DNA from: Acidicapsa ligni
GTDB taxonomy: Bacteria > Acidobacteriota > Terriglobia > Terriglobales > Acidobacteriaceae
Length of the DNA: 64,000 nucleotides
Direction: 5' to 3'
Assembly (NCBI RefSeq): GCF_025685655.1
Contig: NZ_JAGSYG010000002.1
Span: forward strand, 248,001 to 312,000
The position numbers and the translations under genes are program-made. Positions 8,193 to 25,046 of the stretch are shown piece after piece. Below the pieces are notes generated by a model. It did not search any database. It saw nothing but the letters and a program-made list of their open reading frames with translations, and was not told the DNA's origin. Positions within the stretch are counted from its first letter, which is position 1. The number at the start of each line of letters is the position of its first letter.

Positions 8193-11100
8193 TTACTGCA
8201 CGTCGAGCGTAATGGTGGCGGATTGTTGGATATTGCCGCTGGTCGCCGTTACTTTCAGGGTATACGTCTCCGGCGGTGGCGAGGAGCCTCGGCTGTGACC
8301 GCCGCATCCTGTAAGAACAGCGGCCACAGGCACACAAATCAGAGCGAGCGATAACAGCCTCAGCATCTGGTTCATCCTGCGTCTGGATTTGCGCATTCCT
8401 CCGGCAGCGAAAAATGGAAGAAACAGAAGAGCAAGTGTTATTGGCGGCAGCTTTCTTCCTAAAGCAGGAGCAGGCTGTATCGCGGCGGAGGCGGGTGCCT
8501 GGATGGTCAGGGTGACAGTCTGTTTTCCTGCGTTAGCTGCGACTGTAGCGGGCGAAAAGGTTGCCGTCGCCCGGGGCGGAAGTCCACTGATGGAAAAATT
8601 TACCGGACCCGCATAGGAGCCATAGAGCGGATCCAGGTTGAACGGATAACTAACCGAACTTCCTGGAGTAACGGTCAGAGTGGTCGGTCCCGATATGGTG
8701 AGACTGAAACCGAGCGGAGCTACGGTCACGGTTGTGCCTGCGGAGGCATTGCTGCCTGCGAAGTTTGTGTCACCACTGTAGGCAGCAGTCAATGTGTGGG
8801 TCGTTCCGGCCGCAAGGGATATGGTGGCATAACTGGCTGTGCCTGCAGAAAGAGTCGCGGTGTTTAGCAGGGATGTGCCGTCGTAAAAGCTTATGGTGCC
8901 GGTCGGCGTGCCGGATGTAGCAGAACTAACCTGCGCGGTCAGAGTCACGCTCTGGCCTGGAGTGGTTGAAGTGCTGCTGACCTTCAACGCGGTCGTTGAA
9001 GAAGCCTGAGTGATATTCAAAGCCCCATTTGTGATCGCCGCTGCGTAATCAGAGAGATTGGTTCCGGTTACGCTCGGGACGATCGGATACGTTCCGGCGT
9101 TGGAGGTGATGGTAGCGGTGGTGCTGAAGGTTTCGATGAAGGTGTCTCCATCTTGCGCGCCAGTTACCTTGCCGCTGAAAGCCGGATTGGGGGTGCCGTA
9201 GACCCTGGTTGCATTGTTGGCGGTGATCGTCAGGGCTGGTCGATTGACGATCAGGGTTTGCGTGACCTGGAGCGCAGGCGGATATGTTGTATTCCCGGCC
9301 TGGTTTGCGGCCACTATGATCGTGCCTGCCCCGCCCACGACCATTGTGTTGCCGCTGATTGTGCCGGGGCCTGAAACGACACTGAAGCTGACGGGGAGGC
9401 CTGACGTAGCGGTAGCGGACAGCACAATGGGAGCAACGCCATAATTTACAGGACTGGCGAGAGTGAAGCTGATGGTTTGTGACGATTGCGCAGGAGATAC
9501 ATTGAAGGCATTGCCTGGAGGCGACGAGATGGCAATCGATCCATTGAGAGTCAAATTCGCAGTAAGGGTATCGCCGGTGCCTGTTGCGCTTACGCTCAGG
9601 GCGGAATACGTGGCGATGCCGTTGCTGGGGGAAGTTGCAGCCGATCCGCCGGAAAGCTTGCCATTGCCGGTCAGCGACAGAGGGATCGTCACCGAGCCAC
9701 CAGTGAAGCCGTTGCCGCTTTCGTCGAGTTGCACGGTGGGAGCCGGACTCATAGATTTGTTTTCCGTCACTGCCGACGGTTGTTGCACGAAGGCCATAGA
9801 GTAGTTGGTCTGCACCGCACCCGCATCCTGACAGGTGTTGCTGCCGTAAACAGTCGTACGCGGCAGACCTCGCTGGTCAGTTCCGGCAGCGCTTGAAGGA
9901 TTGATGGCGCAGATCGCCACGCTGCCCGGCAACGGAATCATTGTCTGCGTAGGGCCACCATAATTGCCCAATGCCGACAGGTTGGCTGCTATTCCGACGA
10001 TGTTGCCTAAGACGCCATTTGCAGGGCAGTTGCCGTTGCCGCCGGGGTAGATCATGCATTCTGCGCCGGTGTCTCCGGTCAGGATGCTGTTAAAGACCTC
10101 AAGGGTGCCATAGTTTGCGATGGTTTCGTCGCCTGAGTTGCTGGTGAAAGTGCTCCCGTTCACGTCGAGCTCGCCGCCGTAATTAAAGATTACGGGCTGG
10201 CCGTTGGGTGCGGTATTCCCGAAAACAGTACTGTTGTTCAGACTCACTGTGACAACGTTGAAGAGGATGCTGGCAGAGCCTGAACTGTTCCCGGATAGAG
10301 TGCTGCTATTCACCGTGAGATTACCGGAGTTGTTAATCGCGCTACCTTGCTCTGATTTATTGTTTGAGAGCGTGCTGGCGTTTATGGTCAGAGAACCATC
10401 GTTCGTAATGAGTCCGCCCGAGCCGCCATTGGTGATGATCAAAGAGGTAATGGACGTATTACCGCCGGACACGGTGAAGATAGATTCCTGGCTATTTGCT
10501 CCTCCTCCACCAGATACAGTTACGAGATTGGTAAGCTGCGATCCACTTCCTGAGGTCCTGCCGATGATCGAGGTATTGCCGGGGATGGTGAACGTCCCGG
10601 CGCTGCCAAGCAGGATTGTTTTCGCAGCGGCAAAGAGTGTTGCATCGAAGGTGATTTTTCCTGCGACATCGTTGGCTGCATAGAGCAGCGCGTCGCGCAG
10701 GCTGCATGCGGCGTCAGTGCCCTTATCCGGATTAGCCTGCGGCGTGCAATTGGCCTTGTTACCGGCATCATCGCTGCTGGTGGTTACGACGAGGTTCGGC
10801 GTAGACGCCGCGGAGACAACGATGCCACTGGAGACGCCGATCAAAGTGTTATTGATGGTATCGGTTGCCGTGATTGTCTGTGATCCTGTGGTTCTCAAGG
10901 TCGCGGTGTAGGTTCCTGTCCCATTTGTAAGTGGGCTGTCTGCGGGCAATGTCGCGGCTGTGTCGTTACTGGTGAAGTGAAGCGTGGTTGAGTAGTTTGT
11001 GACGGGAGCATTGCTTGCATCCAAAGCCTGGACGGTGAAAGAGACAGGTGTTCCTACCGTGGCTGTAGCCGGCGCCGAGACTTCAAGATGTGTCACGGGT

Positions 11101-14100
11101 AAAGCAGCGACAGTGATGCTTGCCGAAGCGGAATTTCCGCGGGCCTGCGCAGTGATGACCTGGCTGCTTGTATCCACCACTGAACCGGCTGCGATTCCGG
11201 TCACACTCACCGACAGCACGCAGGAGGAAGCCTTCGGGATCGTTCCCGCGGTCAACGTGATCGAAGACGAACCTGCTGTCGCGGTTGCCGTTCCGCCACA
11301 GCTGTTGGACAGGCTGTTCGGTGTTGTCACGACCAGGCCTGCAGGCAGCGTGTCACTGAAGGCGGTAGTGGTCAACGCTACGCTTGCGTTGGGATTGTTC
11401 AGGGTGAAGGTCAGCGTGGTGGCGCCTCTGAAGGGAATAGACGCAGCGCCAAATGCCATTTGCAGGACTGGCGCGGAAACGGGGTTCGCGGATACGGTGA
11501 GCATGGCGTCTGGATCTGTGGCGATGGAATAGGCAGGCGCAACCTGGATTGTGGCCGAGAGAGTATCGGTGCCGGGAGCGGAGACCGACAGACTGCTGAA
11601 AGATGCTCCGATGCCGCTGACGGTGGTTACCGGACCTAATCCGGTTGCAGCGCCGGTTCCGGCGAATGTGAGAGTGACCGGTACACCACCTGTGTTTTGT
11701 CCACTTTCCGTGACGGAGACGATCGGTGTTGGGCTGGGGCCGGTGGGCTGATTTGTCACGGCGTTGTAGCCGGAGCCTGCATTGGTGAATTGCACCGACT
11801 GGAAATTAGTCTGGACAGCGCCTAGATCCACGCATGGATGGCTACCGGAGAAACCGGTGTACGTGGTATTGAGACGAGGAAATCCACGCTGATCCGTCGT
11901 GATGCCCACGGGTATAAGTGCGGGGGAACCTGCGCAGATCGCTGCGCCGCCTGGCAAGGGAAGCATGGTCGGGGTTGGGCCGCCGAAGTTGCCGATAGAC
12001 TCGAGCGGCGCATTGATAACGTTGTTTGGAGTGCTGATCAGGTTGTACATGCTCTGCGTGCCGCAGCCGTCGCAGTCGTCACCAGCGGCGGGGGCTGTGT
12101 TGCCAGCTACAATCGTGTTCGTCATCGTCAACCGGGCCGGGCAGCTATAGTAGAAACCCTGGTTGTTGTAGATGCCGCCACCTTGACCTTGGGCCGTATT
12201 GCCGCTAATAGTGCTGTTGTTGATGGTTATCGTGCCGCAGAGGTTGTGAAGAGCGCCACCGTCACCGGCAAGAGCGGTGCCGCCGTCCCCTGGCGGGGAG
12301 GCCATGTTGCCGAAGAACGTGCTGTTATTCAGGATCACGGTTCCGTTGTTGAAGATCGCCCCGCCGCTGCCAGACAGCGTATCCTCAGCGTCGGAATTGC
12401 CGAAAGCACCATTGCCGGTGAAGGCGCTGCTGTTCACAGTCAACGTTCCACCGTTGTAGATGGCTCCGCCGTCGGCGAAGATAGGGCTGCCGTTTGGTTT
12501 GTATTGCCCTGAGGCGTTATTGCCGGTGAAGATGCAATTGCTGATTGTGAGAGTGCCCTCGTTATCAATGCCGCCGCCGGAGCCAGCACTTCCGTTCGCA
12601 ATCGCAAGTCCGGAAAGGATGACGGACCCTGGACCGCTGACAATCAAGATGCCCACCACGCCCGCGCCGGAGACGGTAACCACATTCGCTCCCGGTCCTT
12701 GAATCGTCATGCCTTGGCTTACGGTCAGCGGCGCTGTCAGGCTGATCGTGTTTTGGGCCGCGGAATTCGAGGACGCGAAGATCTTCGAATCGAAAGTGAT
12801 CACGCCCCCGCTTGCATTGTTTACATAGGTGATCGCATCGCGCAGACTGCAAGCCTTGTCTGTCCCAATGCCCGGCTTGCTTTGAATCGTGCAATTGGCG
12901 GCATTGCCAGCGTCATCGGCAGCCGTGGTCACCACCAGATTGAAAGGTGCATCCACGACGATGCCGCCGGAGACGCCGGTCAGACTCGCGTTCTGGGTAT
13001 CGGTGGCTGTGATGGTCTGCGTCCCAAGCGTTATCAGAGTCGCGACAAAGGAGCCACTGCTTTGAAACAACGTGCTGTCTGCGGGCAACGTCGAGGCAGC
13101 GTCGGTACTGGTGAAATGCACCGTTCCCGAGTAACCCGAGGTCACGTTGCCGTTGATGTCGTAAGCCGTGACCGTCAGGTTGATCGGTGTTCCGGTGACA
13201 GCTGTGGGAGGCGCGGAAACGACGAACCTGGCTGCCGGTCCGGCAGCCACACCGATCGGGGTGGTGCCGGTGATGGTCGCGTGCATCGTATCCGTGACGG
13301 TAATAGTCTGGTTTACGGCTGTAAGCAGCGTGACGGTGAACGTACCTACTCCACTGCTCACGGAGGCATTGGCGGGTAAGATGGCCGCCGGATCGCTGCC
13401 GGTGAAATGTACTGTGCCGCTATAACCGGTCGCCGTTTGATTGTTCGCATCCTGCGCTGTCACTGTAATGCTGAAGGGAATGCCCGCAGTCACGTTACCT
13501 GGCCCCGTGATCGCGAAGTGCGTCGCTGGATTGCCTGCAACCGTGGTTACGTTGAAGGGGCTGCTTGTGGCTGTCAGCGTATCTTCAGGCACGATGAGCA
13601 GACTTGTGGACAGAGTGTCCCCCGTTCCTGCCTGATTCACAATCAGGTTGCCAAACGTGGCGACGCCGCCACTGGAAATCTGCGTCGTTGTGCCCTCCAG
13701 CGCGCCCGTACCGTGAAATGTAACCGTGACGGGAATGTCATTCACTGCATCGGTGTTGTTGGGTGCGGGGAGGTCCGGGTTTGTCTCCAACACCTGCAGG
13801 GAGGGAGCAGGCGTGATCGCCTCGCCTGCCGCGCTATTTGTCGGTTGTTGAACGAAATTGACTGAAGTGTAGTGGGTCTGTACGGCGCCGGCGTCCAAGC
13901 AGGGACTGCTGCTGTATCCGGTATAGGTGGTGTTGAGACGCGGAAAGCCCCGTTGATCGTTGATAAGACTGCCGGGAAGAAGCGCCGGGGAACCCGCGCA
14001 GATGGCCGCACTGCCGGGTGCGGGAATCATGGTGGCCGTAGTGCCGCCGTGGCTACCCAAAGTCGAAAGTGAAATATTGCTCACCCCAACCACATTGCCG

Positions 14101-16199
14101 TTGATGCCATTTTGAGGGCATCCATCGCCGTTGCAATCTCCGCCACTGTCATTGACCAGGACGCTGTTGGTCATGGTGAGCGTGCTGCCGAAGTTGGCGA
14201 CACCGCCGGCGGAGGTGCTGACCTGGGAGCTATTGGAAGAGAACGTACTGCTGGTTACGTTCAATGTACTGCCGTTATAGATTGCTCCACCACCAAATCC
14301 GAATCCGGAGCCGCTGCCAGTATTCCGTACCAGGTTGGCATAAAAGCTGCTGTTGATAACCGTCAGGACATTGTTATTGGAGATTGCGCCGCCGTTGGTG
14401 TCTGAGAAATTTCCAGAGAAAGTGCTGTTAAGGACTGTTGATGTGCCGTCGTTATAGATTGCGCCGCCGGCCCCCTCCGCATAATTGTTAGAGAGGCTAT
14501 CGCTATTCATTACGAGGGTGCCGGTGTTTTGAATGCCTCCGCCGTTGCCGAAAGACTGGGAGCCGGAGATTGTACTGTCTGTGACAAGAGCTGTACCGGA
14601 GTTGCTGACAGCGCTGGAACCACTGGAGAGACTGCTGTCGCTCACAATCAGCGTGCCTGAGTTGACGATGCCGGTGGCATTGGCGCCAGAAACGGTGCTA
14701 TTGCTCAGCGACAATGTGCCGGAGTTGACGATGCCCTGGGATTGATTGACCGCCTCTCCTCCACTTGGATTGATGGTGACTCCGGAGAAGACGGCATCCG
14801 CTCCGGCGTTCACCGTAAGCATGCTGCCGGAGAGGACAGTCGCGTTTTCGCCAGCGATTGTCAGCTCATTCGCACCCGGCCCGCTGAGATTCAGATGCCC
14901 CGAGATGGCCGGGAGCTGACCGATCAGCATGATAGTGCCAGAGGAAGTTGAGTTGACCAGGCCTGCTTTAAAGACGATATCTGCCGAGCCACCTGTGGCG
15001 ACCGTTGTGAGAGCAGCGCGCAGAGTGCAGGTGCTTCCGCAGGACCCCGACGTACTGTCCGAGAGCGTAGTTACAGTGAGGTATCGGGTTTGTATCGCGC
15101 CCAGATCAATCTGAGCGTTTGCCGAGGAAGGACGATTGAAGCCGCGTTGATCCGCAGCCAGCTCCCCGATTTGATAGCTTCCCGCGCCGATCACCGGGCT
15201 GCCCGGCATCGGAATCATCGTTTGTGTGGGGCCACCATTCCAGCCCAATGCACCAAGCTGAGGCGCGCCGCCGATGAGGTTGCTTGAGCTTTGCGCGCCG
15301 CAATTGTCGCAATCGTCCGACCCAAGTACGCCGCCTGTGGTATTTCCAGCGACGATGGTGTTGATGGCGGTGATCGTGGGCGCAGGCGAATCGGACAAGT
15401 TGTTGAAGATGCCGCTACCGCTTGTGCCCGCAGAATTGCCGGAGACGGTGGTGTTGTTCAGCACAATTGTGCCACTGTTGTTATCGATGCCGCCTCCGCT
15501 GGCTCCTGCGGAATTACCGGAAAAGGTACTGTTCGTCACTGTGAGCGCGCCACTATTCTGGATTCCGCCGCCGAGAGTGCTCGCCGAATTGCCCGTGAAG
15601 GTGCTGTTGTTTACGGTCAGATTGCCGGCGTTGTCGATGGCGCCCCCGTTGGTTGCGGAATTGGTGGAAAATACGCAGGCTGTGAATATAACCGCGCCAC
15701 CTGAGATCAGGACGCCGCCTCCCGCCCCGTTCGTTGCGGCGCGGCCATTGGCGATGGTCAAGCCTGAGATCGCGACAGCGCTGGAGTTGATGGAGAACAC
15801 AGTCGCGCTGTTGCTGCCCGAGATGGTCAGCAGGTTTGCGCCCGGGCCCTGAATCGCGATGTTCGTACTGATTGAGAGTGTTCCGCCGGTCAGGGCAATA
15901 ACCTGTCCATCCAGGGAGTTGGCGAAGGTGACAGTGTCCCCGGATTTCGCATGGTTGATTGCATACCGCACCGAGTTGGAGTCAGATGGGCTATCTGTCG
16001 TGTCAGACACCGTCCACGTGGTCGCGCCAGCACTCGATGCGAACAGACCAAAGCAGAGCAATACCGCAATCAAGCCGGGCAGACGAAGTGTTGTTCCGTC
16101 TTGACTGGGCTCCGTAATTCTTCGCATCAACCAGTAAGTAGCTCTGGGAAGAAAACTAAGAAGCATTCCACTTGTATGCGCAGACCTGGCTTTGGCCAT
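8193..16199 (-). CDS. Giant secreted beta-helix/Ig-like surface protein
   Basis: 2668 residues. GGAGG lies 8 bp upstream of the ATG at 16199, giving a long signal peptide ending LFASSAGA near residue 59. Four right-handed beta-helix modules follow, rich in NNSGTLTVNNSTFSGNSA-like coils. Each opens with a CSLRDA-type motif or variant (near residues 390, 1116 and 1833; the first module begins VRYAINHA). Between them lie Ig-like modules (AGIPFSITVTAQDANN, about four copies), a DUF11-like domain, an MBG domain (NATRVYGTPNPAFSG) and an Ig-like repeat (GTISFYDG). The C-terminus has a hydrophobic helix, a RKSRRR patch, a second helix ending LTGC at residue 2632, and a VTATSGN strand. Probably an adhesin or cell-surface scaffold; no enzyme domain seen. 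Confidence 0.9.
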   Translation of the reverse strand: MAKARSAHTSGMLLSFLPRATYWLMRRITEPSQDGTTLRLPGLIAVLLCFGLFASSAGATTWTVSDTTDSPSDSNSVRYAINHAKSGDTVTFANSLDGQVIALTGGTLSISTNIAIQGPGANLLTISGSNSATVFSINSSAVAISGLTIANGRAATNGAGGGVLISGGAVIFTACVFSTNSATNGGAIDNAGNLTVNNSTFTGNSASTLGGGIQNSGALTVTNSTFSGNSAGASGGGIDNNSGTIVLNNTTVSGNSAGTSGSGIFNNLSDSPAPTITAINTIVAGNTTGGVLGSDDCDNCGAQSSSNLIGGAPQLGALGWNGGPTQTMIPMPGSPVIGAGSYQIGELAADQRGFNRPSSANAQIDLGAIQTRYLTVTTLSDSTSGSCGSTCTLRAALTTVATGGSADIVFKAGLVNSTSSGTIMLIGQLPAISGHLNLSGPGANELTIAGENATVLSGSMLTVNAGADAVFSGVTINPSGGEAVNQSQGIVNSGTLSLSNSTVSGANATGIVNSGTLIVSDSSLSSGSSAVSNSGTALVTDSTISGSQSFGNGGGIQNTGTLVMNSDSLSNNYAEGAGGAIYNDGTSTVLNSTFSGNFSDTNGGAISNNNVLTVINSSFYANLVRNTGSGSGFGFGGGAIYNGSTLNVTSSTFSSNSSQVSTSAGGVANFGSTLTMTNSVLVNDSGGDCNGDGCPQNGINGNVVGVSNISLSTLGSHGGTTATMIPAPGSAAICAGSPALLPGSLINDQRGFPRLNTTYTGYSSSPCLDAGAVQTHYTSVNFVQQPTNSAAGEAITPAPSLQVLETNPDLPAPNNTDAVNDIPVTVTFHGTGALEGTTTQISSGGVATFGNLIVNQAGTGDTLSTSLLIVPEDTLTATSSPFNVTTVAGNPATHFAITGPGNVTAGIPFSITVTAQDANNQTATGYSGTVHFTGSDPAAILPANASVSSGVGTFTVTLLTAVNQTITVTDTMHATITGTTPIGVAAGPAARFVVSAPPTAVTGTPINLTVTAYDINGNVTSGYSGTVHFTSTDAASTLPADSTLFQSSGSFVATLITLGTQTITATDTQNASLTGVSGGIVVDAPFNLVVTTAADDAGNAANCTIQSKPGIGTDKACSLRDAITYVNNASGGVITFDSKIFASSNSAAQNTISLTAPLTVSQGMTIQGPGANVVTVSGAGVVGILIVSGPGSVILSGLAIANGSAGSGGGIDNEGTLTISNCIFTGNNASGQYKPNGSPIFADGGAIYNGGTLTVNSSAFTGNGAFGNSDAEDTLSGSGGAIFNNGTVILNNSTFFGNMASPPGDGGTALAGDGGALHNLCGTITINNSTISGNTAQGQGGGIYNNQGFYYSCPARLTMTNTIVAGNTAPAAGDDCDGCGTQSMYNLISTPNNVINAPLESIGNFGGPTPTMLPLPGGAAICAGSPALIPVGITTDQRGFPRLNTTYTGFSGSHPCVDLGAVQTNFQSVQFTNAGSGYNAVTNQPTGPSPTPIVSVTESGQNTGGVPVTLTFAGTGAATGLGPVTTVSGIGASFSSLSVSAPGTDTLSATIQVAPAYSIATDPDAMLTVSANPVSAPVLQMAFGAASIPFRGATTLTFTLNNPNASVALTTTAFSDTLPAGLVVTTPNSLSNSCGGTATATAGSSSITLTAGTIPKASSCVLSVSVTGIAAGSVVDTSSQVITAQARGNSASASITVAALPVTHLEVSAPATATVGTPVSFTVQALDASNAPVTNYSTTLHFTSNDTAATLPADSPLTNGTGTYTATLRTTGSQTITATDTINNTLIGVSSGIVVSAASTPNLVVTTSSDDAGNKANCTPQANPDKGTDAACSLRDALLYAANDVAGKITFDATLFAAAKTILLGSAGTFTIPGNTSIIGRTSGSGSQLTNLVTVSGGGGANSQESIFTVSGGNTSITSLIITNGGSGGLITNDGSLTINASTLSNNKSEQGSAINNSGNLTVNSSTLSGNSSGSASILFNVVTVSLNNSTVFGNTAPNGQPVIFNYGGELDVNGSTFTSNSGDETIANYGTLEVFNSILTGDTGAECMIYPGGNGNCPANGVLGNIVGIAANLSALGNYGGPTQTMIPLPGSVAICAINPSSAAGTDQRGLPRTTVYGSNTCQDAGAVQTNYSMAFVQQPSAVTENKSMSPAPTVQLDESGNGFTGGSVTIPLSLTGNGKLSGGSAATSPSNGIATYSALSVSATGTGDTLTANLTLNGSIAISSPPGNAFNVSPAQSSQTISFTLASPVNYGVAPIVLSATATSGLPVSFSVVSGPGTISGNTMVVGGAGTIIVAANQAGNTTYPPALQVTQTLIVNRPALTITANNATRVYGTPNPAFSGKVTGAQDGDTFIETFSTTATITSNAGTYPIVPSVTGTNLSDYAAAITNGALNITQASSTTALKVSSTSTTPGQSVTLTAQVSSATSGTPTGTISFYDGTSLLNTATLSAGTASYATISLAAGTTHTLTAAYSGDTNFAGSNASAGTTVTVAPLGFSLTISGPTTLTVTPGSSVSYPFNLDPLYGSYAGPVNFSISGLPPRATATFSPATVAANAGKQTVTLTIQAPASAAIQPAPALGRKLPPITLALLFLPFFAAGGMRKSRRRMNQMLRLLSLALICVPVAAVLTGCGGHSRGSSPPPETYTLKVTATSGNIQQSATITLDVQ

Positions 16200-19378: not shown

Positions 19379-20017
19379 GTGAACATTTCATTATTTTTCG
19401 CAACTGCTCAGAACCTCCGGGGTTTTAATTTGATCTCCACGAACGCCGACGGTATTCACTTCGTTCTGAGCGGGCCGGACAATCACATTCGCAACAGCTT
19501 CGTCACTCGCACTCTCGATGATGCCCTGGCCATCGACTCCATCGATCTCGCCACCGAAGTCAGTAAGAGTGGACCAAGGCAACTCACGGTGCAACGCAGC
19601 TTTTATCGACGCTTTCCGAATGGCACCGCCGTAAACTTTGTCGATCCCTCGACGGCTGAGGAACTGGCTGGCGCTGCGATCGTCTCGCAGAGCCCTGCCG
19701 GTTCCAGTTCGCCCACGCTCAACGGAACCGTCGATCTCACCTTTGACCGCGATCTTCCAACCACCATCGCGGCAGGCTATGGAATGGTCTTCGCCAAGGC
19801 AGAGGATCGCGGCGCCGGATCGAGCATCGAGGGAAATGAAGTCAAGGAAATATCCTTTGGCCGCGGCGTTTATATCGCTGGCGCGGAAGGAGTGAGCGTC
19901 GAACGTAATCGTATCGAGCACAGCAGCAACGCTGGCATCGGGGTTTTTCAAAACGTCACGTCTTATCCTGGCCCTCCAGCCCACGACATCATGATCGCAA
20001 CCTTCAGCGCTCAATAG
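19379..20017 (+). pseudogene. Fragment of a secreted parallel beta-helix protein
   Basis: The reading frame translates as beta-helix coils: GFNLISTNADGIHFVLSGPDNHIRN, then TLDDALAIDS (a GH28/pectate-lyase-like D-D-A turn), and later SFGRGVYIAGAEGVSVERNRIEHSSNAGIGV. There is no signal peptide, and the N-terminal start and C-terminal end of such proteins are missing. The stop comes straight after a coil. Related proteins are secreted polysaccharide-active or dextranase-like enzymes. I read this as the surviving middle of a decayed gene. Confidence 0.55.
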
Positions 20018-20054
20018 GTGCAAACGAGAACTCTCGTCCCTTGACAAGAGCGCG

Positions 20055-20357
20055 TTGACTCTTTTAATGGCGCGTGGCGATGCACGGAATTTCTCTCAAA
20101 TGGACTACGTCTATTTCGATCCAGCTACGGGCGGGGAACTGGCACTGTGGAATCGAGGAATCAACAACACATGGGACGGAAGATTTGTCTTCTGGCTGAG
20201 CCCATTGCATTTCGGATATGACTGGGAACTTGCGATCAAAATCTCTGGGCCGCGCTCTGCCTCTTCTGTCGATTACAGGAGTGCGTATGTATTGGAACCG
20301 ATACCTTGGCAAGAAGTGGAAACGGATCAAAGACCGAACGTATTCGTCGGGAGATAA
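20055..20357 (+). other. Protein-like reading frame, unassigned, possibly a gene remnant
   Basis: About 100 codons translate to a sequence with natural protein composition (NFSQMDYVYFDPATGGEL, WNRGINNTWDGRFVFWLSP) but no start with a ribosome binding site. It follows the beta-helix fragment in another frame. It may be a relic of the same or a neighbouring gene. No family recognised. Confidence 0.3.
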
Positions 20358-20483
20358 CGCTGTACTGGACTGATTTCTGTTGTTTGAGTAAGTCGGGTAG
20401 TGCGGACTTTGTTGAAGAAGAACTTCCTTCGATAGATACTGGGGGCTTTCCGCTATCATTAGGCAGTCGTCAGCCTCCGGGTT

Positions 20484-20537
20484 GTCGATCTCCGGCCTCC
20501 TTCGGTGCTTCGCCAAAAAGACTACCGGGGGAGGCCG
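20484..20537 (-). ncRNA. Structured RNA motif, copy C (minus strand)
   Basis: Read on the minus strand: outer stem CGGCCTCC/GGAGGCCG (8 bp), inner stem CGGT/ACCG, apical loop AGTCTTTTTGGCGAAGC (17 nt), then GAGATCGAC directly after the outer stem. It shares loop and 3' block with copies A and B, while both stems differ in sequence but keep pairing. It points away from the S4 gene, towards degraded sequence, so its partner gene may be lost. Confidence 0.65.
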
Positions 20538-20630
20538 TCTACCCTCTTCTCCCTCCTCAATTCTTAATCGGTACAGTTCGCTGATTGCCACTTGACGTAA
20601 ATATACGACCAAAGTAGTCTGCATTTAAAG

Positions 20631-20683
20631 CAGAGAGCCGTGGAGTCTTTTGGCGAAGCGCCGCGGCCACTCTGGAGATCGAT
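20631..20683 (+). ncRNA. Structured RNA motif, copy A, in the leader of the S4 paralogue
   Basis: Outer stem CAGAG/CTCTG, additional GCC/GGC pairs, inner stem GTGG/CCGC, apical loop AGTCTTTTGGCGAAGCG (17 nt), followed at once by GAGATCGAT. It ends 46 bp before the ATG of the S4 paralogue. The position in a 5' leader suggests a cis-regulatory RNA. It matches no riboswitch class I know. Confidence 0.7.
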
Positions 20684-20729
20684 ACGACGGTGTGTTTCAG
20701 CACATCGACCAGAAGGATGAAACGACGAT

Positions 20730-21353
20730 ATGAGTCAACGAAAGAAGTGGAAGATTCAGCGTGCGCTGGGTCTGGAACTACCAGGTCTGGGCAAGCCCGG
20801 TGCACTCGAAAAACGGAACTACCCTCCAGGGCAGCACGGCAAAGCCCGCAAGCCTAAGCTGTCGCAGTTCGGCGCACAGCTTCGCGAAAAACAGAAACTG
20901 ATCTTCCACTATGGCATTCGCGAGGAGCAGTTGCGACGGTTCGTTCGGAAGGCGAAGAGTCTCCAGCCCAAGAATTGGATCGAGGCCCTGGTTGGTCTTC
21001 TTGAGCGGCGTCTCGACAATATTGTGTTCCGGCTGGGCTTTGCTCGCAGCATGGCGGCAGCGCGGCAGTTGGTCTCTCATGGCCACATCCTGGTGAACGG
21101 TCGAAGAGAGACTATCGGCTCGATGCTGCTTCATCCTGGAGCGGTCATCGAACTCAGTGAGAGAGCCAACCTGTGGGAGACGACACAGAGCGCCCGCAAG
21201 GCTCCGCGGCTGCCGTTGCCATCCTTCCTGCAATTCGAGAGCCCAGAGGGCATGGAACGAGGTGTGCTGCTCTCCATCCCTGATTCACGTCATATTCCAT
21301 TCGAGTTCAACACGAGTCAAGTTGCGGAGTATTACGCAAAGCGCGGCGTTTGA
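20730..21353 (+). CDS. rpsD: Ribosomal protein S4 paralogue lacking all cysteines
   Basis: 207 residues, normal S4 length. The N-terminal S4 domain ([16 protein letters not shown] ... [28 protein letters not shown]) and the S4 RNA-binding domain ([31 protein letters not shown]) are intact. The N-terminus lacks the CxxC...C metal site of cysteine-bearing S4 forms; there is no cysteine in the whole protein. The gene is not in the usual rpsM-rpsK-rpoA operon but sits before a TonB receptor and an exported CbiX-like protein. Cysteine-free ribosomal paralogues often replace zinc-binding ones under metal limitation. That reading is inference; the main rpsD is not in this window. An AAGGA lies 12 bp before the ATG. 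Confidence 0.92.
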
Positions 21354-21373
21354 CGTAGTTGAGATAGGTACAG

Positions 21374-21460
21374 CAGTCCGATGGGGAGTCTTTTGGCGAA
21401 GCGCCCCTGAAGGATTGGAGATCGACAACCAGGCGGGGTGGTCCGCAATGGACGACCGCC
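21374..21460 (+). ncRNA. Structured RNA motif, copy B, in the leader of the BtuB-like gene
   Basis: Outer stem CAGTCC/GGATTG (21374-21379 with 21412-21417), inner stem GGGG/CCCC, apical loop AGTCTTTTGGCGAAGCG, then GAGATCGAC (21418-21426). A second strong hairpin follows at 21432-21460, with arms GGTGGTCC/GGACGACC (one mismatch) around GCAAT, ending 21 bp before the receptor's ATG. That second hairpin could act as an expression platform. Confidence 0.7.
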
Positions 21461-21481
21461 GCAACCGCGAAAGGTGAGGCG

Positions 21482-23755
21482 ATGCGAAGCGCTGTTTTTC
21501 TTGTTCTATTCATGCCTTTTCTTGCGAACGCACAGAGTGCATCGCAGCACGTGGATGGTCATGTTCTTGACCCCCACGGTTCCGCAATATCTCACGCAGC
21601 CGTTACACTGCGCAACTCGTTAAACGGGGCTGCACAACAAACTGAAACCAATGCCACGGGAGAGTACAGCTTCAACACTGTCTCTCCAGGCGAATATATC
21701 CTTACGGCTTCAGCAACCGGGCTGGCGGCTGCAGTTCGTACAGTGCAAATCAGACAGGGCATCGAGGCAACATCAGCCGACGTTTCTCTCACCGTAGCGA
21801 CGGTGGAGCAGAATGTGACCGTGGTCTCCGCGTCGCGTGTAGAGGAACTGCAGCAGGATTCTCCGCTGCCTGTCGATGTGATCACGCGAGAGCGGATTCA
21901 ACGGACGGGGTTTGAGAATGTAGCCGATGTTCTGAGTGAGTTGCCGGGTGTAGTTACGCGCAACAACGCGTCTTACTCCGGTTCGTCGCAGGAGCAGATC
22001 GACGGCATCGCTTCGCAGGATGTGTTAGTGCTGCAGGATGGTCTGCCGCTGGTTGGAGCTCGGGGGATCAACAGCGGCATCATCGATCTCGACGAGCAGA
22101 ATATCGGGAGGCTGGATCGGGTCGAAGTGGTTCGCGGTGCAGCTTCTTCTCTGTACGGAACAGATGCTATCGGTGGAGTCATCAACCTGATTACGCATGA
22201 GCCGACGCATCCTTTTGAAGGCGGCCTGCGTGTTTCAGGCGGCACCCTCGGCGCTTTCGATGGGGATCTCGATGTGGGCTCGCAATGGAAGAAGCTTACG
22301 GCATTCACCGATCTTGAACTACATCGCATCAACTCATATCCGCTGGTTCCTGGCGATGAAAGCACTATAGGTGCTAACAATCAACGCTACGACGGCCTGG
22401 TGAAACTGGCGTACAGCTTCAACCCGCGTGCTTCGATTGCCTATAGCGGCAATGCTTATCACAACACGGCGGATGGCAAGAGCGCGGATATTACCGGTAC
22501 GGCTGGATCGGGATACGATTACGCCGAGAGCCAGGACAGCACGCAGACGCACGCGCTGATCGGAAATTTCCTTCCTACATCGACGACAGCGGTGCAGGCG
22601 CGAGTGTATGAGGCGCGCTTCGATTCGAACTCGTACTCGAATCCAATCAATGCGGACGGTACTCATGGTGCGCAGTTTGACTACGGCAATCTCTATGAGC
22701 GCTATCACCGCGCAGATGCGACTGCTTCACAACAGATGGGTTCGTGGAACTTTCTTCAGGGTGGGGACGAGTGGGTTCAAGACTCTTATCGCGGCCTTAA
22801 CAGGATCGTTGGTAATGACAACGGCCAACAGATCACGACCAACGATGTATGGCTTCAGGATCGGATTCAGCCGTGGAAGAAGCTCATCATCAACGTGGGG
22901 GGACGGTATGATCACCACTCGCTTTACGGTAATCATGTTGTCCCGAAGATTGGACTTGTCTACAAGATCGACGATCACTGGACTGTTCGTACTGCATACG
23001 GAAAGGGTTTCCGTTCTCCAACCATCGGCGAACTGTATTACCTGCTGCTTCATCCCGAGTACGGTTATCAGGTGATTGGAAATCCGACGTTGCAGCCGGA
23101 ACGCAGCGAGAGCTATTCCGTGGGCGTTGATTACCAGGTGAACCGCTATAGCTTTGGGGTATCACTCTACCGAAACAATCTGAATCACCTGATCAACTAT
23201 GTCATTGCCGGTGCGCCCGCGACGCAAGCGGATCTTGATACGTTGCTTGCACAGTATGGCATTCCGGCATCGTTTGGCGCGGAGCCCGGACTTTATACCT
23301 ATGTGTACACCAATGTCGATCAGGCCTACACGCAAGGGATCAACCTCAAAGGAAGCGTGCTGCTTAACCACAATCTGCGCGTGGATGGCTTCTATGCATA
23401 CCTCGATCCCTACGACGTGACTGACAAACAAACTCTCACGGAACGCAGTCGTAACGCCGGCTACTTTCGCACGGAGTATATTGCTCGACGCCTGGGACTT
23501 ATCGCTAACATCCGAGGTAACTTCTACGGGCGCTGGTTGATTGATGCCGATAGCGGAACACATGAACAGGCTTATGCTTTGTGGAACTTCTACGCCTCGA
23601 AGGATATTACACACGGTATTCAGGCGTATGGAACCATCGACAATCTCGCCAACAGTCGCGACAGCCTTCTCAGGCAAACGTCACCATCGTATGACCGCAC
23701 CGATTACGGAAGAACCTTTCGCATCGGGATGCGCTACACCTTTCCCCACGAATAA
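21482..23755 (+). CDS. BtuB-like TonB-dependent outer-membrane receptor
   Basis: 757 residues. Signal peptide FLVLFMPFLANAQS, then a carboxypeptidase-like Ig domain (VDGHVLDPHGSAISHAAVTLRN, about 20-100). The plug domain starts VTVVSASRVEELQQDSPLPVDVITRERIQRTG and contains VADVLSELPGV and VEVVRGAASSLYGTDAIGGVINLIT. A 22-strand barrel ends in the expected aromatic-rich strand (FRIGMRYTFPHE). Plug and size resemble vitamin B12/metal-chelate receptors such as BtuB rather than Oar-type giants. Energy would come from TonB-ExbBD, not encoded here. Placed after the S4 paralogue and RNA copy B, and before a small protein and a CbiX-like gene, it probably imports a corrinoid or metal chelate. Confidence 0.88.
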   Translation: MRSAVFLVLFMPFLANAQSASQHVDGHVLDPHGSAISHAAVTLRNSLNGAAQQTETNATGEYSFNTVSPGEYILTASATGLAAAVRTVQIRQGIEATSADVSLTVATVEQNVTVVSASRVEELQQDSPLPVDVITRERIQRTGFENVADVLSELPGVVTRNNASYSGSSQEQIDGIASQDVLVLQDGLPLVGARGINSGIIDLDEQNIGRLDRVEVVRGAASSLYGTDAIGGVINLITHEPTHPFEGGLRVSGGTLGAFDGDLDVGSQWKKLTAFTDLELHRINSYPLVPGDESTIGANNQRYDGLVKLAYSFNPRASIAYSGNAYHNTADGKSADITGTAGSGYDYAESQDSTQTHALIGNFLPTSTTAVQARVYEARFDSNSYSNPINADGTHGAQFDYGNLYERYHRADATASQQMGSWNFLQGGDEWVQDSYRGLNRIVGNDNGQQITTNDVWLQDRIQPWKKLIINVGGRYDHHSLYGNHVVPKIGLVYKIDDHWTVRTAYGKGFRSPTIGELYYLLLHPEYGYQVIGNPTLQPERSESYSVGVDYQVNRYSFGVSLYRNNLNHLINYVIAGAPATQADLDTLLAQYGIPASFGAEPGLYTYVYTNVDQAYTQGINLKGSVLLNHNLRVDGFYAYLDPYDVTDKQTLTERSRNAGYFRTEYIARRLGLIANIRGNFYGRWLIDADSGTHEQAYALWNFYASKDITHGIQAYGTIDNLANSRDSLLRQTSPSYDRTDYGRTFRIGMRYTFPHE

Positions 23756-24062: not shown

Positions 24063-25046
24063 GTGCGGAAAATATTCTTGTTTGTCTTCGTACTATTCTG
24101 CTGCTTTGAGTTAAGCAAGGCTCAGGCGCAGAGTCCTTCTGTACCGGCTGCTGGTGAACCTCATGCGCGTGTCGGAGTTCTGCTCCTGGCGCATGGGGGC
24201 AGCGCCCAGGAATGGAACGAAGAGGTGCGACACGTTGCAGACCAGGTGGACCTTGTGATGCCGACCGAGATTGCTTTCGGCATGGCGACGAGATCTTCAA
24301 TGCAGGCGGCTGTTGACCGTCTGGTGGCTCGTAAGGTCACTGCGATTGTGGCGGTGCCGCTGTTTGTCAGTTCGCACAGCTCTGTGATCGATAGCATCTC
24401 GTATCTACTCGGTTCCCGTTCGGCGGAGCCTGAGGATTTGAAGATGTTTGCGGAGATGGATCATGGCAGTGGCGGCATGGTGATGGACCACGGATCGATA
24501 CGATCAATGCCGCATGATCCGAGCATGACCGCGGAAGCTAGAAAGCCGATTTCTTCACCGGTCCCTATTCGGCTGGCGTCCGCACTCGATCACCATCGGA
24601 TAGTTGCCGACATACTTCGTGACAGAGCTGCCTCTGTCAGCCGTGATCCAGCGCATGAGGTCGTTGTGCTTGTGGCTCACGGCCCGGTTCCGGACAGTGA
24701 GAACAAATTGTGGCTTGACGATATGGCTTTACTGGCAAGCGAGATGGGGCAGCAGAGCCATTACGTTGGAATCGAATGCCTGACACTGCGCGATGATGCA
24801 GATGATCCAGTGCGCAGTGCTGCAACGGAACAGCTCCGCAAGAGAGTCGAGCAGATTAGCAAAGGCGGAAACACGGTGTTGTTGGTTCCGCTGTTGCTCT
24901 CGTATGGCGGCATCGAAGGTGGGCTTCGCAAGCGGTTGGATGGCCTGAGCTATAGGATGCCTTCGCAGGCACTGCTACCGGATAAGCGGATCGTGGATTG
25001 GGTGATCGACACGGCGGCTCTCTCGTCTACGAAGACAGTGCAGTAG
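24063..25046 (+). CDS. Exported CbiX-like (sirohydrochlorin chelatase family) protein
   Basis: 327 residues from GTG 24063, with GGAG upstream. An N-terminal signal peptide (IFLFVFVLFCCFELSKAQA) is unusual, because classical CbiX/SirB work in the cytoplasm. Two CbiX-like halves follow: LLLAHGGSAQEWN with the second conserved histidine in LFVSSHSSV, and LVAHGPVPDSENKLW with a C-terminal LLSYGGIEGGLRKR. Between them, near residues 131-157, lies a His/Met-rich loop (MDHGSGGMVMDHG, then MPHDPSM). The family inserts Co, Ni or Fe into sirohydrochlorin or binds metal. In the periplasm it more likely binds or loads metal or a corrinoid delivered by the adjacent receptor. A terminator-like hairpin follows. 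Confidence 0.82.
   Translation: MRKIFLFVFVLFCCFELSKAQAQSPSVPAAGEPHARVGVLLLAHGGSAQEWNEEVRHVADQVDLVMPTEIAFGMATRSSMQAAVDRLVARKVTAIVAVPLFVSSHSSVIDSISYLLGSRSAEPEDLKMFAEMDHGSGGMVMDHGSIRSMPHDPSMTAEARKPISSPVPIRLASALDHHRIVADILRDRAASVSRDPAHEVVVLVAHGPVPDSENKLWLDDMALLASEMGQQSHYVGIECLTLRDDADDPVRSAATEQLRKRVEQISKGGNTVLLVPLLLSYGGIEGGLRKRLDGLSYRMPSQALLPDKRIVDWVIDTAALSSTKTVQ

What the first reader, a model, noticed from the sequence alone, without database searches (positions are those of the whole stretch)
20484..21460. Three-copy structured RNA motif around an S4 paralogue and a BtuB-like receptor
Three 53-54 nt elements (20484-20537 minus, 20631-20683 plus, 21374-21426 plus) share one architecture. Each has an outer stem, a 4-bp inner stem, a 17-nt apical loop AGTCTTTT(T)GGCGAAGC(G), and GAGATCGAY immediately 3' of the outer stem. 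The loop and 3' block are conserved. The stems differ yet remain paired: outer CAGAG/CTCTG, CAGTCC/GGATTG, CGGCCTCC/GGAGGCCG; inner GTGG/CCGC, GGGG/CCCC, CGGT/ACCG. Compensatory changes in both stems inside one kilobase are strong evidence of a selected RNA fold. Two copies are in 5' leaders of genes that fit a metal or corrinoid response, and copy B is followed by a second hairpin just before the start codon. It does not fit the cobalamin, NiCo, Moco or other riboswitch consensus I know. A ligand-binding or protein-binding cis-regulator is inferred.
Basis: partly seen in the sequence, partly recalled or inferred. Interest (0 to 1): 0.9.

Follow-up and report, generated by a model that had tools for sequence, protein, structure and literature searches.

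The report
Iron-regulon leader RNA in Acidobacteriaceae
Three copies of a small folded RNA sit near the starts of genes for metal uptake and for a zinc-free ribosomal protein in a soil bacterium; relatives carry many more copies in front of iron-related genes, so it looks like an undescribed RNA switch or docking site for iron control.

Summary
In detail: all three hairpins are where stated, with varied but paired stems, a fixed apical loop and GAGAUCGA. Rfam gives no match over threshold. A covariance model gives 154 matches in the loci fetched, 45 of 398 genomes in the family and 8 of 396 in the phylum, all 8 in that family. Stem covariation is strong. The matches mostly head TonB/Oar-type receptors, cysteine-free uS4 paralogues, PepSY_TM proteins and sigma factors, with FTR1, SIP and Fur genes among the neighbours: an iron regulon, with no support for corrinoid or cobalt. 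A GAC-N7-GTC palindrome lies upstream in 84 of 153 cases against 5 of 3609 control windows. It resembles the site of the Fe-S repressor RisR (PMC9973013, passages), and the window genome has an Rrf2 gene beside iscS with such a site. So the element lies in leaders under probable Fe-S-type transcriptional control and may add translational control. Its partner (ligand, protein or sRNA) is unknown. Twenty-four copies without an assigned gene keep the covariation.

The parts
20484..20537 (-). Copy A: hairpin 1 plus GAGATCGAC; no recognisable gene follows
   Evidence: R2 score 70.1 bits; following ORFs without Pfam match over cut-off
20449..20483 (-). Copy A 3' extension AACCCGGAGGCTGACGACT...ATGATAGCGG, the long-form block shared with many receptor, sigma and PepSY leaders
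20592..20620 (+). Predicted promoter of the uS4 paralogue: TTGACG, N17, TAGTCT
   Evidence: by eye; the simple scan lists only the minus-strand site, so inferred
20601..20625 (.). RisR-like palindrome ATATACGACCAAAGTAGTCTGCATT (GAC-N7-GTC) between divergent copies A and B; scores 13 of 20, just at the threshold used
   Evidence: site form from PMC9973013
20600..20629 (-). Minus-strand promoter-like site (TTTAAA, 18, TATATT) that would transcribe copy A
   Evidence: 9 of 12 matches; 0.4 expected in shuffles
20631..20683 (+). Copy B: hairpin 1 plus GAGATCGAT, 5' leader of the uS4 paralogue
   Evidence: R2 score 56.7 bits
20711..20716 (+). Shine-Dalgarno AGAAGG of the uS4 paralogue, complementary to the apical loop
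20730..21353 (+). uS4 paralogue without cysteines (207 aa); the zinc-ribbon uS4 is at G000:C2:15822-16355
21374..21426 (+). Copy C: hairpin 1 plus GAGATCGAC, between the uS4 paralogue and the receptor gene
   Evidence: R2 score 57.1 bits
21432..21461 (+). Second hairpin of copy C (GGCGG...CCGCC); not part of the fixed core
21469..21474 (+). Shine-Dalgarno GAAAGG, the form favoured in these leaders
   Evidence: 56 of 103 leaders against 14 of 491 control genes
21482..23755 (+). TonB-dependent receptor (757 aa), substrate unassigned
   Evidence: Pfam Plug and TonB_dep_Rec_b-barrel; the 25 best NCBIfam models shown all below cut-off
24063..25046 (+). CbiX-domain protein behind the receptor; in L048 a similar protein (by eye) is followed by FTR1 and SIP-type genes

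Best explanation
A new cis-acting leader RNA of an iron regulon of Acidobacteriaceae. Shown by sequence: a hairpin with covarying stems, a nearly invariant apical loop (G)UCUUUUGGCGAAGC and a GAGAUCGA tail, mostly just upstream of the start codons of iron-related genes, often behind a RisR-like GAC-N7-GTC palindrome, and also kept where no gene could be assigned. Inferred: the RNA adds a post-transcriptional layer to Fe-S-dependent transcription. In the closed state the UCUUUUGG loop pairs with the Shine-Dalgarno sequence (GAAAGG, or AAGGAGAC in uS4 leaders) and slows translation initiation. A regulon-wide partner that reads loop plus GAGAUCGA (an RNA-binding protein or small RNA, less likely a small ligand) shifts it. 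Copies without a gene would then act as decoys. None of the steps after 'Inferred' is shown.
For: Covariation on alignments not fitted to the structure (48 sequences, 24 unassigned copies: 51 double-change cells against 17.7 in shuffles, 0 of 500 as high). 154 matches grouped by the following ORF: 61 receptor cluster, 26 uS4-like, 17 PepSY, 8+2 sigma, 5+2 outer-membrane, 2 flavodoxin, 31 unassigned. Iron neighbours FTR1, SIP, FUR. Palindrome upstream in 84 of 153 against 5 of 3609 control windows; by class PepSY 17 of 17, sigma 8 of 8, uS4 19 of 25, receptors 29 of 61, unassigned 12 of 31. Rrf2 gene beside iscS with its own such site. GAAAGG in 56 of 103 leaders against 14 of 491 controls; loop:SD energy -6.15 against -4.78 kcal/mol, different after allowing for anti-SD strength (t = -4.7); 1 of 60 shuffled loops did as well.
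Against: The loop hardly varies, so loop:SD pairing cannot be tested by covariation; SD and U-rich sequences pair easily; leaders are related, so the SD counts are not independent. No palindrome was found upstream of the 5+2 outer-membrane, 2 flavodoxin and 2 minor sigma copies, and its consensus was read from these same upstream regions. Hairpin 2 is variable or absent. About a fifth of stem cells do not pair. No expression data, no identified partner.
Confidence: 0.55

Rival explanations
1. A riboswitch: the conserved loop, GAGAUCGACAACCC and GGCUGACGAC...UAUAGAC blocks form an aptamer for Fe2+ or an iron-linked small molecule, and binding masks or frees the Shine-Dalgarno sequence.
For: About 100 nt of conserved, largely unpaired sequence in the long form; placement just before the SD; one gene set with one likely signal.
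Against: The shortest leaders keep only hairpin 1, GAGAUCGA and the SD (L148_7373, a weak 20.9-bit match, L150_7169, L154_7732), little for an aptamer. Found in one family only. Copies without an assigned gene.
Confidence: 0.27
2. A passive 5'-end hairpin that protects iron-regulon mRNAs from decay; the loop is kept for stability alone.
For: In uS4-type leaders the predicted +1 falls almost at the base of the hairpin (by eye).
Against: Simple protection does not need a fixed 15-nt loop and 3' tail; copies that appear to lie inside operons (C; L042 behind fur) are not at a 5' end.
Confidence: 0.1
3. An operator for the uS4 paralogue itself: the cysteine-free uS4 binds the leaders as a moonlighting regulator.
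For: Paralogue and element co-occur: 31 genomes hold both, of 45 and 41 in 398, about 4.6 expected. Two diverged S4-domain proteins also follow a copy (L048, L160; and the sequence tested).
Against: 14 of 45 element genomes lack a paralogue at the E cut-off used, including strong single copies (G031, G033); no similarity to own 16S beyond shuffles.
Confidence: 0.06
4. A mobile or palindromic DNA repeat.
For: Several copies per genome, up to 14.
Against: Stems covary while the loop is fixed; 103 of 123 leaders given a start have it within 90 nt on the same strand; flanks differ between copies; a palindrome often lies upstream.
Confidence: 0.02

Closest known systems
RisR / IscR (Rrf2) regulons with GAC-N7-GTC operators (PMC9973013, passages read)
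   Same: Operator form; an Rrf2 gene beside iscS with its own site; iron and Fe-S logic
   Different: The passages describe transcriptional control only; here a conserved RNA follows the palindrome. The window's Rrf2 protein is over the Rrf2 superfamily cut-off but below the IscR, RirA and SUF-regulator equivalog cut-offs
Metal riboswitches (NiCo/czcD, Mn yybP-ykoY, Moco; recalled)
   Same: 5'-leader RNAs of metal genes with a conserved unpaired core
   Different: No Rfam match; one hairpin plus tail; copies without an assigned gene; ligand unknown
Iron-responsive element and CsrA-type protein-bound hairpins (recalled)
   Same: Small hairpin with a fixed loop shared across a regulon near the SD or start codon, with free copies as possible decoys
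   Different: Different loop; no binding protein known
   Same: Cysteine-free uS4 beside a zinc-ribbon uS4 elsewhere in the genome
   Different: That paper found no Zur site near such paralogues in the 26 genomes it searched; here the 12 paralogues inspected, of 42 found, have a RisR-like palindrome scoring 12 to 18 of 20

Membership tests
Known Rfam class (cobalamin, NiCo, Moco, NAD+-I, Acido-1 and others) | Score at or above the family's gathering threshold | tested here: not met
   Window: only a tRNA. Element region at E up to 10: four eukaryotic or viral families far below threshold, two of them overlapping copy A (mir-9242 E 0.77, flavi_FSE E 4.3). L006, L007, L010: none.
Cis-acting structured leader RNA | Covarying helix, same-strand position shortly before start codons | tested here: met
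Riboswitch | Direct ligand binding changes structure and expression | not testable with these tools
   needs probing
RisR/IscR-type regulon | GAC-N7-GTC palindrome flanked by A/T overlapping the promoter | tested here: met
   84 of 153 upstream regions against 5 of 3609 controls (consensus read from the same regions); overlap with -35/-10 by eye
RisR/IscR-type regulon | Rrf2 protein with three cysteines beside Fe-S assembly genes, itself preceded by the site | tested here: met
   translation; IscS and Rrf2 over cut-off; site
RisR/IscR-type regulon | Assignment of that Rrf2 protein to a named IscR, RirA or SUF-regulator equivalog | tested here: not met
   99.7 of 110.65 (SUF regulator), 76.2 of 207.55 (IscR), 72.4 of 193 (RirA); no RisR model in that list
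RisR/IscR-type regulon | Binding of the protein to the site | not testable with these tools
   needs EMSA or ChIP
Mobile DNA repeat | Insertion irrespective of gene starts | tested here: not met
BtuB vitamin B12 receptor (window receptor) | Score over the TonB-B12 cut-off | tested here: not met
   167.8 of 599.7 bits

The most novel reading that the evidence does not exclude
A dedicated iron-sensing RNA class: one compact RNA module, used both as the leader of many iron-starvation genes and as free RNA, that reads iron or Fe-S status directly and gives a second, translational tier beneath an Rrf2 Fe-S repressor, and that also helps switch a zinc-free uS4 into ribosomes when iron runs low.
Probability: 0.2. 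Interest if true: 0.92.

Novelty: new variant of a known kind. Interest (0 to 1): 0.73.

Why it matters
It adds an RNA family not found in Rfam, with about 150 model matches in soil bacteria that include named genera (Granulicella, Edaphobacter, Terriglobus, Silvibacterium), and ties it to one likely signal, iron. It suggests two-tier iron control. It also gives a testable idea of what controls zinc-free uS4 paralogues: a RisR-like site and an RNA leader, where an earlier study found no Zur site (PMC3087516, passages).

Tried and rejected
Model R1 (six sequences) gave 136 of 250 family genomes at E up to 0.01. Many weak matches of about 58 nt are likely coding sequence: the three loci looked at (L066, L070, L071) read as uS3, one confirmed (L066). 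I dropped those three loci, rebuilt the model (R2) and do not use the 136. Of the first pattern hits, L002-L005 lack stem and GATCGA (by eye). The Aquabacter hit (1 of 57 stretches) lacks the stem (by eye).

16S mimicry was no better than shuffles. Loop pairing with the downstream UAUAGAC or CCGAAGG blocks was weighed by eye; variants contradict it. The apical mini-stem CUU/AAG has one supporting double change (CUC/GAG in a diverged copy in L230 found by eye, missed by the model) and one contrary case (GUCUCUUGGCGAAG in L059). RNAalifold on 50 long forms found little beyond hairpin 1. No structure prediction was run.

Literature: listings; passages of PMC9973013, PMC2864571 and PMC3087516; term searches in PMC11109978 (no occurrence) and PMC8632094 (one occurrence, in the reference list). 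Nothing I saw there describes this element; supplements could not be searched.

Full report
What was checked. The three hairpins are at the stated coordinates with the stated stems, loop and 3' block. In the window the loop word is matched without mismatch only there. Rfam 15 has no match to them at gathering thresholds, only four sub-threshold eukaryotic or viral families at E up to 10 in the element region, and none at E up to 10 in three homologous loci.

It is a family. A pattern search over 61 genomes gave a fourth copy in the window's own genome and copies with stem and GATCGA in two relatives (L006, L007, L010). Model R1 (six sequences) and then R2 (48 of the 70 hits then known) were built. 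R2 finds the element in 45 of 398 genomes of the family at E up to 1e-4, up to 14 matches each, and in 8 of 396 genomes of the phylum, all 8 in that family (stricter filters, weak matches lost). The loci fetched hold 154 matches at E up to 0.01 (71 in 49 sources; 83 in 50 sources), down to 20.9 bits. In named genomes an exact pattern lies in 57 stretches, 56 of them with Acidobacteriota titles; the 57th (Aquabacter) lacks the stem.

It is RNA. On the MAFFT alignment of 48 sequences, not fitted to the structure, 80.5% of stem cells pair (shuffles 61.6%) and 118 cells change on both sides (shuffles 44.3), each reached by 0 of 500 shuffles; slid controls fall to at most 58.3%. That 11 of 11 pairs have some double change is reached by 129 of 500 shuffles and carries no weight. 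The structure was read from individual sequences, which favours it somewhat. The loop is nearly invariant. By class, mean z-scores are -1.4 to -3.3 for hairpin 1 and +0.2 to -3.1 for the region behind GAUCGA (uS4 -2.0, receptors -1.6, unassigned -0.7).

Where it sits. By the ORF that follows the 154 matches split into 61 in a receptor cluster, 26 uS4-like, 17 PepSY_TM, 8+2 ECF sigma, 5+2 outer-membrane, 2 flavodoxin and 31 unassigned. Clusters are BLAST single-linkage; families were tested on representatives only, the two minor sigma copies and the larger outer-membrane group not at all. The flavodoxin start is well over 100 nt away in one of its two cases. Neighbouring genes that were tested include FTR1, siderophore-interacting proteins, Fur, AraC and a multicopper oxidase. 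In 103 of the 123 leaders given a start, it lies within 90 nt.

The palindrome. Reading upstream showed ATATAGGACTAAATTAGTCSTATAT overlapping a -35/-10 pair. With a fixed N7 spacer it scores 13 of 20 or better upstream of 84 of 153 copies (one of 154 had no anchor) against 5 of 3609 control windows of the same loci. With other spacers allowed it was 85 of 153 against 10 of 3060 mononucleotide shuffles. The consensus was read from these upstream regions, so the enrichment is partly built in. By class: PepSY 17 of 17, sigma 8 of 8, uS4 19 of 25, receptors 29 of 61, unassigned 12 of 31, and none in outer-membrane (5 and 2), flavodoxin (2) or minor sigma (2). Some copies without it lie inside operons: window copy C behind the uS4 paralogue, and L042 behind fur, which has a palindrome at its start. 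Independent support: Myxococcus RisR, an Rrf2 [Fe-S] repressor whose subgroup includes Acidobacteria, protects Tt/gGAC-N7-GTCCt/a (PMC9973013, passages). The window genome has four Rrf2 matches; the best carries three cysteines, lies beside iscS (over cut-off) and has GGACCGAACGGGTCC before it. It is below the IscR, RirA and SUF-regulator cut-offs, so 'RisR-like' rests on the site form and the iscS neighbour. A strict scan of that genome found three places (the window's own palindrome has too many mismatches to be listed): copy D; an outer-membrane/cytochrome c pair without the hairpin; and a TonB receptor whose leader has a diverged fifth copy that the model misses.

The uS4 paralogue. The canonical uS4 has a zinc ribbon; the paralogue at 20730-21353 has no cysteine. 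Element and paralogue co-occur (31 genomes hold both, of 45 and 41 in 398; Fisher p about 9e-27, not corrected for kinship), but 14 element genomes lack it and 10 paralogue genomes lack a detected element. I inspected 12 of the 42 paralogues: all have the palindrome, scoring 12 to 18 of 20 (one below the threshold of 13); five have the element, six have none apparent and one (L218) has a diverged hairpin. So the paralogue looks like a member of this regulon and is not an obligatory partner of the RNA.

Mechanism. Leaders favour GAAAGG as SD (56 of 103 against 14 of 491 control genes). The loop AGUCUUUUGG pairs with leader SD regions better than with control ones (-6.15 against -4.78 kcal/mol; t = -4.7 after allowing for anti-SD strength; 1 of 60 shuffled loops did as well). 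Leaders are related and starts were chosen by SD strength in both sets, so these figures overstate independence. uS4 leaders often use AAGGAGAC, which matches GUCUUU. This supports but does not prove a loop:SD pseudoknot. The partner that reads loop and tail is unknown: narrow range, very short leaders and gene-less copies lean to a protein or small RNA; the long conserved unpaired blocks lean to an aptamer.

Copies without a gene. Of the 31 unassigned copies, 7 were left out (some with a gene on a second look, some poorly matched) and 24 aligned afresh. They covary like the leaders: 83.5% paired against 67.5% in shuffles, 51 double-change cells against 17.7, 12 of 12 pairs with none of 500 shuffles as high, so as a set they are not decaying. 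In 11 of the 24 the nearest listed downstream ORF is convergent, in L178 and L180 the aconitase gene acnA; others have same-strand ORFs further off, so 'stand-alone' is not settled for each. Window copy A is one of the 24. A decoy or small-RNA role is inferred.

Verdict. A real leader RNA family, absent from Rfam, of an iron regulon.

Noticed in passing
L212, L213, L214, L215 (upstream of the uS4 paralogue): Without the element, the uS4-paralogue leader can form another hairpin (for example GUUGAGGGACCCUC...GGAGGGGUCCUCAAC in L213) that masks the Shine-Dalgarno sequence just behind the RisR-like palindrome (by eye).
   Followed up: no
L048:13203-13883, L160:5805-6596: Diverged S4-domain proteins without the ribosomal S4/S9 N-terminal domain follow a copy of the element; possible RNA-binding regulators.
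   Followed up: partly
L178:4368-4422, L180:4462-4516: Copies without a gene of their own end about 44 nt from the 3' end of convergent acnA (aconitase, over cut-off).
   Followed up: partly
L230:1570-1680: Diverged fifth copy in the window genome before a TonB receptor, loop CUC-UUGGCG-GAG; the model does not find it.
   Followed up: partly
L218: uS4-paralogue leader with a diverged hairpin, loop AGUCUUUGGCCGAAGC, but without GAGAUCGA.
   Followed up: no
window 19379-20357 (+): Two short ORFs convergent with copy A; the first has a sub-threshold right-handed beta-helix match. They may be remnants of one gene.
   Followed up: partly
window 8193-16199 (-): One ORF of 2668 aa with repeated blocks, adhesin-like by eye.
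   Followed up: no
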